From: Saprospiraceae bacterium
GTDB taxonomy: Bacteria > Bacteroidota > Bacteroidia > Bacteroidales > JAIPBB01
Length of the DNA: 14,266 nucleotides
Direction: 5' to 3'
Assembly (NCBI GenBank): GCA_021739805.1
Contig: JAIPBB010000121.1
Coordinates: forward strand, 1 to 14,266
Under the pieces are notes generated by a model. That model worked only from the letters and a program-made list of their open reading frames with translations, did no database searches and was not told the DNA's origin. The translations under genes and the position numbers were made by a program. Positions 6,131-13,790 of the stretch are shown one piece after another. The stretch's first letter is position 1. Each line of letters begins with the position of its first letter.

Positions 6131-6145
6131 ATGAAGATGGCAGAG

Positions 6146-6205
6146 AGGCATCCAGACTGACTCCCTTCGGTCGAAAGGCATCCAGACGGACTACCTGCGG
6201 TAGAA
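6146..6205. repeat. Two tandem copies of a 30-bp repeat with mini-hairpins
   Basis: Copies at 6146-6175 and 6176-6205 both begin AGGCATCCAGAC and are exactly 30 bp. They diverge mainly in the centre: the second has a perfect CTACC-TGC-GGTAG hairpin, while the first has CCCTTCGG at the same place. A third 30-bp copy lies at 11274-11303. The same block produces a spurious RESVWMPL peptide in minus-strand frames at both sites. Confidence 0.75.
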
Positions 6206-6242
6206 AGGAAAAATCTTAAAAAATCTGCGTAAATCAGCATCA

Positions 6243-6317
6243 GAAACCTGAAACTTGAAACGAGCAACGAGAAACAAGCAACGAGAAACGAGAAACAAGA
6301 AACGAGCAACGAGAAAC
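6243..6317. repeat. Ten phased heptamers of the GAAACGA/GCAACGA type
   Basis: Ten consecutive 7-nt units fit G[AC]AACNN: GAAACCT, GAAACTT, GAAACGA, GCAACGA, GAAACAA, GCAACGA, GAAACGA, GAAACAA, GAAACGA and GCAACGA, followed by a partial GAAAC. The four units at 1368-1396 belong to the same pattern. No coding function is supported. Confidence 0.8.
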
Positions 6318-6444: not shown

Positions 6445-6999
6445 ATGAATAAAATCAAATTAAACCCAAGATTCATCTTTATTGCAGCAATTATTTTAAT
6501 AGCAGCCGCTTTACGATTACTTATTAACATACCGAATGTTACTCCTATAGCAGCTATGGCATTATTTGGTGGAGCCTATTTCGGAAAACGTCATATTGGC
6601 TATATCATTCCACTTGTAACACTTTTTGTTTCTGATTTAGTTTTAATGTGGATTAATCCAGAATTCGGATTCCATGCTACTATGATTTATGTATATATAG
6701 GCTTTGCAATTGCTGTTACCATTGGAATTGCAATGAAAAAGAAAGTAAATGTTTATTCAATTTTTGGAGCATCTTTATTGTCATCAATAGTGTTTTTCCT
6801 TTTAACAAACTTTGGAGCTTGGATGACTCAAATGATGCCTTATCCAATGAATATTGCCGGTTTGATGGAATGTTATACAGCAGGACTTCCATTCCTAAGA
6901 TGGGAAGCACTTGGAACTCTTGGATTTTCAACTGTATTCTTTGGTGTGTTTTATTTAGCACAACTTAGATTTCCAGTTTTAGCTAAAGTGAAAGCATAA
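6445..6999 (+). CDS. DUF6580-like integral membrane protein, possible transporter subunit
   Basis: This 184-residue protein has about six hydrophobic segments, near residues 10-28, 33-47, 51-69, 79-97, 103-124 and 155-175. Polar signatures lie between them: NVTPIAAMALFGGAYF early, VSDLVL after the third segment and LTNFGAW before the loop. I recall these as hallmarks of the DUF6580 family of putative transport proteins, which resemble the substrate-binding S components of ECF vitamin transporters. No ECF ATPase or T component lies nearby, so any partner would be encoded elsewhere and the substrate is unknown. The gene is a complete single unit, with a consensus promoter 34 bp upstream and a strong terminator 25 bp downstream. 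The coding call is firm; the family call is from memory of motifs. Confidence 0.85.
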   Translation: MNKIKLNPRFIFIAAIILIAAALRLLINIPNVTPIAAMALFGGAYFGKRHIGYIIPLVTLFVSDLVLMWINPEFGFHATMIYVYIGFAIAVTIGIAMKKKVNVYSIFGASLLSSIVFFLLTNFGAWMTQMMPYPMNIAGLMECYTAGLPFLRWEALGTLGFSTVFFGVFYLAQLRFPVLAKVKA

Positions 7000-7024: not shown

Positions 7025-7057
7025 AACTCTCCGGCTTTGGTTGGGGAGTTTTTTTTT
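7025..7057 (+). terminator. Strong rho-independent terminator after the DUF6580-like gene
   Basis: AACTCTCC (7025-7032) pairs with GGGGAGTT (7043-7050), with one G-T wobble and a 10-nt loop. A run of nine T follows. It ends exactly where the repeat array begins, so the array should be mostly untranscribed from this side. Confidence 0.88.
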
Positions 7058-7480
7058 GCTTCGCAAGTCATTTACCCTTCGGGTGTCATTTATGCTGCGC
7101 ATGTCATTTGTCCTTCGGACGTCATTTACTTCGTGTCATTTACCCTGCTGGCGTCATTCGCTTCGCGTCATTAGTGCTTCGCACGTCATTTACCCTTCGG
7201 GTGTCATTTATGCTTCGCAAGTCATTTACCCTTCGGGTGTCATTTATGCTGCGCACGTCATTTACTTCGTGTCATTTACCCTGCTGGCGTCATTCGCTTC
7301 GCGTCATTAGTGCTTCGCACGTCATTTACCCTTCGGGTGTCATTTATGCTGCGCATGTCATTTACCCTTCGGGTGTCATTTATGCTGCGCATGTCATTTG
7401 TCCTTCGGACGTCATTTACTTCGTGTCATTTACCCTGCGGGCGTCATTCGCTTCGCGTCATTAGTGCTTCGCACGTCATT
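7058..7480. repeat. Array A: 25 GTCATT hexamers alternating with variable mini-hairpins
   Basis: Twenty-five GTCATT hexamers, the first at 7067 and the last at 7475, alternate with 12-nt or 8-nt segments, giving 18- or 14-nt units. Most variable segments are palindromes with a 3-nt centre: ACCC-TTC-GGGT, ATGC-TGC-GCAT, GTCC-TTC-GGAC, GTGC-TTC-GCAC, CGC-TTC-GCG and AC-TTC-GT. The stems differ from unit to unit but remain complementary. Only the two ACCCTGCTGGC units and a few end bases break pairing. A four-unit block recurs three times (from 7127, 7263 and 7417). The array lies between a terminator and a convergent gene. Frames through it are open only because 18 is a multiple of three. Confidence 0.95.
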
Positions 7481-7503
7481 ATGTAATACTTAATTAACAA
7501 CTG

Positions 7504-7691
7504 AATGACTATTGAATGACTTCTGAATGACTACTGAATGACAACCGAATGACTACTGAATGACAAATAATGAGGCAAAGCAAATGACAATTGAATGACA
7601 GCAAAGCGAATGACTACTGAATGACAGCGAAGCGAATGACTACTGAATGACAGCGAAGCGAATGACAAATAATGACAGCGAAGCGAATGAC
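7504..7691. repeat. Array B: AATGAC hexamers, inverted relative to array A
   Basis: AATGAC, the complement of GTCATT, recurs about 15 times. From 7504 to 7564 the period is exactly 11 nt, with TACTG, TTCTG, AACCG or TATTG between copies. Later units carry GCGAAGC (7627-7633, 7653-7659, 7678-7684) or the variant GCAAAGC. A short AT-rich junction (7481-7503) separates it from array A. It ends 36 bp before the alkaline phosphatase stop codon. Confidence 0.92.
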
Positions 7692-7727
7692 CGATTCCAA
7701 TATTACTCAATGTTTCTTTTGATTAAA

Positions 7728-8900
7728 TCATTTCGAAAACTCAAACAAAACCATCATCTTGTCAAAAATCTCAGTATTCTCATAAATTCCTTCAAATTTC
7801 TCTGCTCCGGGACCAATAGCAAAAACCGGAACCATTAAACCTGTATGTGAGCTTGTGGAAAATTTCGTTTTAACATCTCCGGTTTTCATATTTCCGTCAT
7901 TTACTGATAATCCACCTGTTTCGTGGTCTGCGGTAACAATTATTAGAGTTTCTTTATTTTTGGCTGCAAATTCCAAAGCAATACCTAGAGCTTTATCCAT
8001 ATCAAAAATTTCGTTAATAATGAAAGTTTGATTTCTTAAATGCCCGCCCCAATCTATTTGTGAACCTTCAATCATTAAAAAGAAACCATCTTCATCCTGA
8101 TTTAAAATCTCAATAGCTTTCTTTGTTGAAACTTCAAGCATATTACCCCTTTTAGGCATCTTCGGGCAATGAGCATCATAAAGTAAAGCGGCAACTTTAC
8201 CTTGATTAAGTGACTGTAAATCTGTTAGATTATAAACGATCGAATAAGATTTTTCCTTTAACTCATTTGTTAAATTCTTTCCATCTTTTCTTTTTTCAAA
8301 ATTATCCCTTCCACCCCCAATAAAAAGGTCAATGTCGGTTTTAAGGAAATCTGCTGCTATTTCTTCATAATTATTTCTTGATATATTATTGGCAATAAAA
8401 GATGCCGGAGTTGCATGAGTAATTGAAGAAGTTGCCACCAAGCCTGTTGCTTTACCATTATCTTCAGCATACTTTAAAATGGATTTAAGAGGTTTTTTGT
8501 TCATATCAACACCAATAGCTCCATTATATGTTTTGACTCCACAAGCCATTGCTGTTCCACTTGCTCCTGAATCAGTAACATAATTGTCGGCTGATTGGGT
8601 TTTGGAAAAGCCAATATGTTTGAAATTTTCAATATAAAGATGATTTTTATTGGCAGTCATAGCAGCAAAAATGTGAGACAATCCCATTCCATCACCGATA
8701 ATTAGAATAATGTTTTTTGGTTTGTGCGACTTGAATGTATCATCCAAGTTAAAGCTTTTAACTTCATAAGAACTAGCTTGTTCAACTTCTGAATCATTAT
8801 AATCTGAACTAGCTTTTTTTTGGAAAAAGCAGGAGGTAAATAAAATAATTAAAAATGATGAAGAAATTAAATAAAATGTGAATTTATGGCTTTTGTTCAT
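7728..8900 (-). CDS. Alkaline phosphatase, predicted lipoprotein
   Basis: This 390-residue enzyme belongs to the alkaline phosphatase superfamily (PhoA type), which releases phosphate from monoesters using two zinc ions and often magnesium. Active-site residues are all visible: D70 in IIGDGMG, nucleophile S111 in VTDSGASG, T164 in THATPASF, E278 in MIEGSQIDWGGH with D283 and H287, D325-H326 in TADHETGG, and H352. The length matches compact bacterial forms. Residues 1-24 form a lipoprotein signal peptide (hydrophobic core, then FTSC), so the enzyme is predicted to be anchored in the envelope. The ATG at 8900 is supported by this signal and by a promoter just upstream. The gene stands alone; no Pho box could be recognised. 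The family call is very secure. Confidence 0.95.
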   Translation of the reverse strand: MNKSHKFTFYLISSSFLIILFTSCFFQKKASSDYNDSEVEQASSYEVKSFNLDDTFKSHKPKNIILIIGDGMGLSHIFAAMTANKNHLYIENFKHIGFSKTQSADNYVTDSGASGTAMACGVKTYNGAIGVDMNKKPLKSILKYAEDNGKATGLVATSSITHATPASFIANNISRNNYEEIAADFLKTDIDLFIGGGRDNFEKRKDGKNLTNELKEKSYSIVYNLTDLQSLNQGKVAALLYDAHCPKMPKRGNMLEVSTKKAIEILNQDEDGFFLMIEGSQIDWGGHLRNQTFIINEIFDMDKALGIALEFAAKNKETLIIVTADHETGGLSVNDGNMKTGDVKTKFSTSSHTGLMVPVFAIGPGAEKFEGIYENTEIFDKMMVLFEFSK

Positions 8901-11221: not shown

Positions 11222-11304
11222 GTTGGTTAGGCTAAGGAGAAGGCTAAGGAGAAGGGAGAAGGCAAAAGTATAAAGGCATCCATACGGACTCCCTTCGGTC
11301 GAAA
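11222..11304. repeat. Purine-rich tract containing a third 30-bp repeat copy
   Basis: The tract starts with GCTAAGGAGAAG repeated twice (12-nt period) and runs into GGAGAAGGCAAAAG. 11274-11303 is a 30-bp copy of the repeat at 6146-6205, beginning AGGCATCCATACGG and containing CCCTTCGG. No gene is supported. Confidence 0.7.
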
Positions 11305-11472
11305 GACAAAAGTAAAAAGGCAAAAGGCAGAAGGCAAAAGGCAGAAGGAAGAAGGCAAAAGTAAAAAGACAAAAGTAAAAAGGCAAAAGGCAGAAGGCAA
11401 AAGGCAAAAGGCAGAAGGAAGAAGGCAAAAGTAAAAAGGCAAAAGTAAAAAGGCAAAAGGCAGAGGTAAAAA
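11305..11472. repeat. 24 strictly phased purine-rich heptamers
   Basis: The run consists of consecutive 7-nt units that fit GNNANAA, with one unit (11459-11465) ending in G. The types are GGCAAAA, GGCAGAA, GTAAAAA, GGAAGAA and GACAAAA. The five-unit order GGCAAAA, GGCAGAA, GGAAGAA, GGCAAAA, GTAAAAA occurs at 11333 and again at 11403, 70 nt apart. Minus-strand frames here give leucine/phenylalanine-rich peptides that are artefacts of the 21-nt codon register. Confidence 0.9.
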
Positions 11473-11695
11473 ATGACGCGAAGCAAATGACACAAAAAGT
11501 CAGAAGTGCGAATACCGAAGTCGGAAGACTAGTTAAAACAACTTAATGACTACTGAATGACCCGAAGCGAATGACATGCGAAGCATAAATGACAACTTAA
11601 TGACATCCGAAGGATAAATGACGCGAAGCAAATGACAACTGAATGACAGCGAAGCAAATGACGCCCGAAGGGCAATTAAAACGAAGCAAATAACA
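11472..11695. repeat. Array C: AATGAC repeats upstream of the rhomboid gene
   Basis: AATGAC recurs from 11472, and the array contains three perfect palindromes with GAA centres: ATGC-GAA-GCAT (11576-11586), ATCC-GAA-GGAT (11605-11615) and GCCC-GAA-GGGC (11663-11673). GCGAAGC appears at 11478-11484 and in later units. Some spacers are plain AACTT/TACTG. About 11490-11525 is irregular. The array ends 16 bp before the rhomboid start, and no TAnnTTTG promoter was found between them. Confidence 0.9.
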
Positions 11696-13310: not shown

Positions 13311-13315
13311 ATTGA

Positions 13316-13371
13316 ATTGTTAAATTGTTCGATTGTTAAATGGTTAAATGATAAAATTGTTAAATTGTTAA
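13316..13371. repeat. Seven phased octamers of the ATTGTTAA type
   Basis: Consecutive 8-nt units run ATTGTTAA, ATTGTTCG, ATTGTTAA, ATGGTTAA, ATGATAAA, ATTGTTAA, ATTGTTAA. GTTAAATTGTTAATTTGC recurs at 13639-13656. 13372-13450 shows nothing further that I can support. Confidence 0.8.
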
Positions 13372-13670: not shown

Positions 13671-13790
13671 AATGACAACTTAATGACTATTGAATGACAA
13701 CTGAATGACTATCGAATGACAACAAAATGAAGCGAAGCAAATGACAATGAATGACGCAAAGCGAATGACAATGAATGACTATTGATGGCG
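13671..13790. repeat. Array D: AATGAC repeats upstream of the last gene
   Basis: AATGAC recurs from 13671, first with exact 11-nt period and AACTT, TATTG, AACTG or TATCG between copies. Later units contain GCGAAGC (13732-13738) and GCAAAGC. It ends about 55 bp before the next start codon. Confidence 0.88.

What the first reader, a model, noticed from the sequence alone, without database searches (positions are those of the whole stretch)
7058..7480. Array of GTCATT plus mini-palindromes whose stems vary but stay complementary
Twenty-five GTCATT hexamers alternate with short segments that nearly all fold back on themselves. The stems come in at least six versions (ACCC/GGGT, ATGC/GCAT, GTCC/GGAC, GTGC/GCAC, CGC/GCG, AC/GT), so sequence changes while pairing is kept. 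That is covariation inside one array and implies the hairpin itself is selected, or is made by a process that copies palindromes. It is not a CRISPR array, a transposon end or a classic REP. A hexamer next to a small hairpin resembles how REP-associated tyrosine transposases (RAYTs) recognise a tetranucleotide beside a REP hairpin, which is an inference only.
Basis: partly seen in the sequence, partly recalled or inferred. Interest (0 to 1): 0.85.

Follow-up and report, generated by a model that had tools for sequence, protein, structure and literature searches.

The report
Paired arrays of tiny DNA hairpins
Between two genes of a bacterium related to the order Bacteroidales lies one arm of a two-armed repeat element, in which a six-letter tag alternates with tiny hairpins whose letters change while their pairing is kept; similar elements occur patchily in other bacteria, and what they do is not yet known.

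Summary
The array is real: 25 GTCATT tags and 24 spacers at 7067-7480. Seven of its 10 distinct spacers pair over at least 3 bp (shuffle mean 0.65). It is one arm of a two-armed element: a reverse-strand GTCATT array follows at 7504-7691.

Related arrays occur patchily in other Bacteroidales, Mucilaginibacter and the phylum of a Calditrichaceae genome. The usual unit is GTCATT-1 nt-stem-TNC-stem'-GTCATT (83 of 107 paired units). Stems co-vary: of 33 distinct 12-nt units, 19 keep all three outer pairs, against 2.4 by permutation. On the AATGAC strand each is a C-GNA-G mini-hairpin, a class published as extraordinarily stable; the loop was inverted in 0 of 76 occurrences where no loop had been pre-selected. 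Opposite-strand neighbours converge, tags outward, in 42 of 43 cases.

Best reading: a REPIN-like, non-autonomous intergenic element with multi-unit arms, kept by hairpin structure and resized by block duplication. A RAYT link is not supported: no array adjoined any of 46 Y1 loci inspected, and Y1 genes are in 29 of 36 genomes without arrays in that phylum. Closest known: CGTC-tagged REPs, whose stem, loop and tail criteria are not met. Function is inferred.

The parts
7058..7066 (+). leading partial hairpin unit before the first tag
   Evidence: sequence
7067..7480 (+). arm 1: 25 GTCATT tags, 24 spacers (10 distinct), hairpin-rich
7481..7503 (.). short centre between the two arms
   Evidence: sequence
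7504..7691 (-). arm 2: 15 tags on the - strand; 5-nt spacers (CAGTA and the like) mixed with hairpin spacers such as CGCTTCGCT
11472..11662 (-). second array, 11 tags, upstream of the rhomboid gene; spacers include TATCCTTCGGAT and TATGCTTCGCAT
13671..13779 (-). third array, 9 tags; hairpin-like spacers at its 5' end, 5-nt spacers after them
6445..6999 (+). flanking gene, DUF6580
   Evidence: Pfam
7728..8900 (-). flanking gene, alkaline phosphatase, convergent to DUF6580
   Evidence: Pfam

Best explanation
Shown: the run is one arm of an intergenic element with two arms facing each other; each arm is a head-to-tail array of the tag GTCATT, in most pairs one arm with mini-hairpin spacers and the other with 4-5 nt spacers only. 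On the AATGAC strand a typical hairpin unit reads AATGAC directly followed by a stem closed C-GNA-G, then 1 nt, then the next AATGAC. Inferred: it is a REPIN-like, non-autonomous selfish repeat. When the DNA is single-stranded or strongly supercoiled, the GNA mini-hairpins fold and the tags of the two arms can pair; the structure is recognised by hairpin shape, GNA loop and tag rather than by stem letters, so stems drift while pairing is kept. Arms grow and shrink by block duplication and deletion. Unlike arms keep the whole from being a perfect long palindrome. The factor that spreads or binds it is not identified.
For: Stem halves co-vary: 32, 27 and 19 of 33 distinct 12-nt units keep at least one, two and all three outer pairs, permuted means 13.5, 4.8, 2.4, maxima 22, 12, 9 of 2000; 71 of 397 spacers with stem >=4 against 6.5, sd 2.5. 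Fixed anatomy in 83 of 107 units. Loop orientation fixed: CTNCG 76, CGNAG 0 in the window and six genomes not chosen by loop (occurrences). Arms converge in 23 of 23 and 42 of 43 pairs; 17 of 23 pairs have one hairpin arm and one short-spacer arm. A dispersed copy family in G069 has both arms and a common centre. Orthologous Mucilaginibacter arrays of 14 and 8 tags differ by repeated unit blocks, and the hairpin that differs changes only the middle loop base, TTC to TGC. GNA mini-hairpins are published as extraordinarily stable (PMC4686876, passages), and a 3-nt-loop hairpin extrudes at superhelical density -0.035 in phage N4 promoters, where non-conserved stem bases may change if pairing is kept (PMC4496689, passages).
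Against: No mobilising gene found beside arrays. Within the window's array 3 of 3 stem differences between near-copies break a pair. In the six loop-unbiased genomes the general palindrome excess is weak: stem >=3 in 15 of 56 against 10.0, sd 2.4, maximum 18. Units of 8 and 9 nt show no co-variation beyond permutation. DNA folding parameters give almost no preference for the GNA strand (-2.22 against -2.11 kcal/mol), while RNA parameters also favour that strand in 31 of 42 units, so a role in RNA is not excluded. In the wider set 18 of 184 arrays lie inside ORFs of at least 80 aa, though 0 of 65 in the chunk set. In the relative G002 the corresponding site has GTAATT tags. Transposition was not observed.
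Confidence: 0.45

Rival explanations
1. Mutational origin: replication template switching on imperfect inverted repeats copies one stem half onto the other, and slippage multiplies the units; no selection for the hairpin is needed.
For: Template switching can create perfect stems and restore pairing (PMC8794818, abstract and opening); the array clearly grows by copying blocks; near-copies carry unrepaired pair-breaking changes.
Against: Template switching between inverted repeats is reported to invert the spacer between them as well (PMC8604942, abstract in the listing), yet the loop is inverted in 0 of 76 occurrences; closing C-G pair, TNC loop and exact tag distance are kept; it does not explain why arms converge in 42 of 43 pairs.
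Confidence: 0.25
2. RNA-level element: the arrays are transcribed with neighbouring genes and their hairpins act in the RNA as stabilisers, terminators or protein-binding sites.
For: Arrays lie mostly between genes in the same direction or convergent ones (uni 42, conv 9, div 3 of 54 placed loci; background 448, 96, 162). G-U wobble would be allowed on the tag strand at several imperfect pairs. RNA parameters give stable hairpins on both strands.
Against: Hairpin arms lie on either strand relative to the genes (36 with, 58 against). The conserved loop is the one published as special for DNA; no Rfam family matches the window.
Confidence: 0.15
3. REP elements proper, cut and moved by a RAYT (Y1 HUH transposase).
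For: Tag directly at the foot of a hairpin. Y1_Tnp in 20 of 20 array-rich Bacteroidales genomes and 4 of 4 array genomes of the G006 phylum. RAYT subclass 2.6, mostly of Bacteroidetes, is flanked by atypical structures with copies elsewhere (PMC6006769, passages).
Against: No array beside 30 plus 16 Y1 loci; the subclass-2.6-like genes have other palindromes beside them, such as CGGGTTTGTAACCCG in L380. Y1 also in 183 of 275 and 29 of 36 genomes without arrays, and DDE_Tnp_1 is enriched likewise. Stems are shorter than the 7-20 nt rule for GTAG REPs (PMC6006769, passages).
Confidence: 0.1

Closest known systems
CGTC-tagged REPs (Di Nocera et al. 2013, PMC3733652; include Neisseria dRS3 and Rickettsia RPE-4 and RPE-6)
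   Same: tag CGTC or TGTC continued by ATT (23 of the 25 tags in arm 1 are preceded by C or T); partners face each other with tags outside; unlike partners common; intergenic; no transposase of their own; reported in Bacteroidetes among 5 phyla
   Different: there single 8-9 bp stems that begin with AT and have 4-5 nt loops and mostly a CCA tail, head-tail pairs negligible and clusters rare; here long head-to-tail arrays, short stems, 3-nt loops, ATT outside the stem. Both kinds coexist in G007
REPINs and GTAG REPs with RAYTs (PMC3116915, PMC6006769; passages)
   Same: inverted pair separated by a spacer, predicted to fold in single-stranded DNA; tag at the foot of a hairpin; tandem arrays of REPs exist in P. 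fluorescens SBW25
   Different: GTAG or GTGG tag, longer stems, RAYT gene flanked by the element; none of that found here
TAACTGA heptamer direct repeats of Beggiatoaceae, Cyanobacteria and five Bacteroidetes (PMC4679880, abstract and passages)
   Same: intergenic direct repeats of one short word, patchy across distant lineages, up to 43 copies
   Different: directly repeated heptamers; no hairpin spacers or facing arms mentioned in what I read
GNA mini-hairpins and phage N4 vRNAP promoters (PMC4686876, PMC4496689; passages)
   Same: 3-nt loop hairpin on one strand; non-conserved stem letters free while pairing holds
   Different: single promoter sites read by a phage polymerase; no such polymerase was sought here

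Membership tests
CGTC-tagged REP | CGTC or TGTC tag | tested here: met
   23 of 25 tags of arm 1 are CGTC or TGTC followed by ATT (sequence); GTCATT is the top spaced hexamer in 8 of 12 genome samples
CGTC-tagged REP | stem of 8-9 bp beginning with AT, loop of 4-5 nt | tested here: not met
   0 such elements in the window; stems of arm 1 are 1-4 bp with 3-nt loops
CGTC-tagged REP | unpaired CCA-like tail | tested here: not met
   units run directly into the next GTCATT
CGTC-tagged REP | facing pairs with tags outside; head-tail pairs negligible | tested here: inconclusive
   facing arms in 42 of 43 pairs, but inside each arm units are head-to-tail
CGTC-tagged REP | no flanking transposase gene | tested here: met
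   no array beside 46 Y1 loci
GTAG REP with RAYT | GTAG or GTGG at the hairpin foot, stem of 7-20 nt | tested here: not met
   tag is GTCATT/AATGAC; stems 3-7 bp among paired units
GTAG REP with RAYT | RAYT gene flanked by the element | tested here: not met
REPIN | inverted pair with spacer, dispersed between genes | tested here: met
REPIN | transposition intermediates or mobility | not testable with these tools
   needs reads or experiments
GNA mini-hairpin | GNA loop closed by C-G on one strand | tested here: met
   sequence only: CTNCG 76, CGNAG 0; folding not measured, and the published class also needs two G-C pairs, which not all units have (for example TACTTCGT)
CRISPR array | long repeats with non-repetitive spacers and cas genes | tested here: not met
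   6-nt repeat, spacers recur; no cas family among the nine window proteins scanned

The most novel reading that the evidence does not exclude
An undescribed class of bacterial repeat: two-armed arrays of GNA mini-hairpins that a host or phage factor recognises as single-stranded or cruciform DNA structure plus an AATGAC tag, with stem letters free, spread horizontally between distant bacterial lineages.
Probability: 0.25. Interest if true: 0.85.

Novelty: new variant of a known kind. Interest (0 to 1): 0.6.

Why it matters
If the hairpins are what is kept, these arrays are natural covariation experiments for DNA rather than RNA structure: many stems per genome that differ in letters but not in pairing. 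They would show that some bacteria carry fields of mini-hairpins of a class known to extrude from supercoiled DNA, and they bring back the question left open by the CGTC REPs: what spreads a tagged palindrome that has no transposase of its own.

Tried and rejected
Viral collection: 84 stretches matched a one-unit hairpin pattern; 75 of the 80 listed rows hold one match. The chance level was not computed and the lead was not pursued. Genome collection: 97 stretches, of which several groups only fit the pattern and are something else to the eye (Chloroflexi JACQUA with CGGACTTC spacers, Verrucomicrobia, Gammaproteobacterium BMAG). They were not removed from the 397 spacers or, where the one divergent pair (QHRF) is such a record.

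Coding function: open frames of 89 and 118 aa cross the array, but units of 18 and 14 nt shift the frame; rejected by inspection. Simple REP-RAYT pair: see rivals. Classic CGTC REPs as ancestors in place: none in the window, 4 in G007, 1 in G006, 0 in nine other samples; control tags 4 in all. G007, titled Deltaproteobacteria, falls in the same order as the Calditrichaceae genome G006, so it is not an independent phylum, and other titles of binned genomes may mislead too. No DNA could be reached for the closest MutL (P0002, 94% identical). Searches for papers listed none on GTCATT mini-hairpin arrays; that covers the open library and those terms only. PMC12306157 was seen by passages only.

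Rows dropped: one search leaves out L177 and L128 as duplicates, loci L182-L241, arrays that were neither hairpin nor pure short-spacer, and, for placing only, short-spacer arrays of two tags. One search uses loci L242 and up that were assigned then, plus the window. The 20 array-rich genomes (at least 30 matches and at least three times the reversed-pattern control) were picked by eye before one search was seen. Not all 18 genomes are rich (G017: 12 against control 12). One search found mutL in 27 of 33 genomes.

Full report
Observation. The run at 7067-7480 holds 25 GTCATT tags and 24 spacers. Around a 3-nt loop 13 spacers pair over 4 bp, 3 over 3 bp, 6 over 2 bp and 2 are broken. Only 10 distinct spacers exist, arranged as A B C D E F G / A b1 A b2 D E F G / A B A B C D e F G, so the array has grown by copying blocks. 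On distinct spacers the excess stands: 7 of 10 with a stem of 3 or more, shuffle mean 0.65, maximum 4 in 5000; exchanging right halves among 8 distinct 12-nt units reaches the observed 20 outer pairs in 72 of 40,320 permutations.

The element is larger than reported. A second array follows on the other strand at 7504-7691 (15 tags), and two more lie at 11472-11662 (11 tags) and 13671-13779 (9 tags). The genes on either side of the element are DUF6580 and an alkaline phosphatase, convergent. The named proteins nearest to the window's MutL are mostly labelled Bacteroidales, at 57-59% identity; an unnamed one is 94% identical. No genome is held for the window.

Spread. A two-unit pattern found 97 stretches in a collection of 84,980 species, many in records titled Bacteroidales and Mucilaginibacter, some Calditrichaceae and Desulfobacterota, and some plainly unrelated. 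Whole-genome counts of GTCATT-N(4-14)-GTCATT against the reversed pattern include G001 509 against 18, G004 695 against 12, G006 273 against 10, G007 242 against 5, G010 216 against 6, but also G017 12 against 12 (18 genomes). Among 295 genomes of the order of G001, 20 are array-rich. In the 40 genomes of the phylum of G006 the hairpin pattern counts 124 in G006, 111 in G007, 19 in G345, 12 in G324 and at most 2 in the other 36. Of 12 genome samples, GTCATT/AATGAC is the commonest spaced hexamer triple in 8, not in those of G006, G007, G220 and G136.

Covariation. Of 397 genome-distinct spacers of 7-20 nt, 71 have a stem of 4 or more against 6.5 (sd 2.5) when each is shuffled. Of the 218 with one CTNCG core, 33 distinct 12-nt flank pairs keep at least one, two and three outer pairs in 32, 27 and 19 cases; permuting right halves gives 13.5, 4.8 and 2.4, with maxima 22, 12 and 9 in 2000. 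The 10-nt units show it too: 18 and 11 of 21 against 12.0 and 4.0, maxima 17 and 10. Units of 8 and 9 nt do not, and six 14-nt units are uninformative. CTNCG cores away from tags in the same DNA have three outer pairs in 2.1% of 12,380 cases. The pattern fixed TTCG but no stem letter except the G that closes the loop. In six genomes chosen without loop information the general palindrome excess is weak, 15 of 56 against 10.0 (sd 2.4), and 5 against 2.0 for stems of 4.

Anatomy. In 83 of 107 units with a stem of 3 or more around CTNCG, one nucleotide separates tag and stem on the 5' side and none on the 3' side. The loop is TNC on the tag strand, hence GNA on the other, closed by C-G. Counting occurrences, window and six loop-unbiased genomes have CTNCG in 76 spacers (of 123) and CGNAG in none; five other genomes 58 and 0 of 85; the pattern-selected loci 233 and 1 of 383. 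N is T, G or A in these; a few units with C are listed in G006 and G007. The mini-hairpin GCGAAGC and other GNA loops with at least two G-C pairs are published as extraordinarily stable and nuclease-resistant (PMC4686876, passages). In phage N4 promoters a hairpin with a 3-base loop extrudes from DNA at superhelical density -0.035, and the non-conserved stem bases may vary if the hairpin is kept (PMC4496689, passages). The folding parameters available here barely distinguish the strands as DNA, so the strand assignment rests on those papers. As single-stranded DNA the stretch 7050-7700 folds at -124.0 (+) and -124.9 (-) kcal/mol against -80.1 and -84.2 in 20 shuffles each, as any inverted repeat would.

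Two arms. Opposite-strand neighbouring arrays converge, tags outward, in 23 of 23 pairs in chunks and window and in 42 of 43 in the wider set. In 17 of 23 pairs one arm has hairpins and the other only other spacers. Of 65 array loci in the chunk set none lies inside an ORF of 100 aa or more; in the wider set 18 of 184 arrays lie inside ORFs of 80 aa or more. In G069 a search with the centre found 11 places, 9 of them clear copies of a dispersed element with both arms. CGTC REPs likewise occur mostly as head-head pairs, with unlike partners that their authors left unexplained (PMC3733652, parts 1-4 of 8 and passages).

Evolution. Two Mucilaginibacter loci, 86% and 82% identical over two long stretches, have an array at the same place, with 14 and 8 tags; a group of four units recurs a different number of times, one tag is degenerate in the shorter array, and one hairpin differs in the middle loop base only. 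In G002, the closest by MutL of 33 genomes searched (83% over a 132-aa fragment), the site behind the DUF6580 gene has an 11-bp-unit array with four GTAATT and one GTGATT tag; the alkaline phosphatase gene was not found there. So arrays change by blocks, and the tag itself can change within one array.

Transposase test. Y1_Tnp: 20 of 20 array-rich against 183 of 275 other genomes; control DDE_Tnp_1: 18 of 20 against 184 of 275. Phylum of G006: Y1 in 4 of 4 against 29 of 36. No array adjoins the 30 plus 16 Y1 genes inspected; one has two tags that are variants of a different palindrome. This agrees with the report that no RAYT gene is flanked by CGTC units (PMC3733652, passage).

Verdict. A real, structured and patchy element, best called a variant of the tagged extragenic palindromes. 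It is built like a REPIN with multi-unit arms, but it is not a member of the CGTC or GTAG families by their own criteria. That DNA hairpins are the selected feature is the likeliest reading, not a demonstrated one.

Noticed in passing
window 6242-6317, 11302-11471, 13315-13371: Other intergenic regions hold arrays of variable 7-8 letter words (AGAAACG, AAAGGCA, AATTGTTA), recalling the heptamer repeats of PMC4679880.
   Followed up: no
window 6142-6208 and 11290-11302 region: A longer degenerate repeat (GGCATCCAGACGGACT...), once in two copies and once near the second array.
   Followed up: no
L323, L320, L322, L336, L337 (G069): Dispersed element of several hundred bases with a common centre and GTCATT arms; its arms include a 7-bp hairpin ATCCGTC-GAA-GACGGAT.
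   Followed up: partly
L268 and others (G004): Tags alternate with GAAAAG and ATG spacers as well as hairpins, a different spacer vocabulary.
   Followed up: no
L380, L386, L387: RAYT-like genes lie beside other palindromes (for example TTCGGGTTTGTAACCCGAA), which may be the atypical structures of RAYT subclass 2.6.
   Followed up: partly
L291-L298 (G007): Classic CGTC REPs with a GAAA loop occur beside mini-hairpin arrays in one genome; this genome, titled Deltaproteobacteria, groups with Calditrichaceae.
   Followed up: partly
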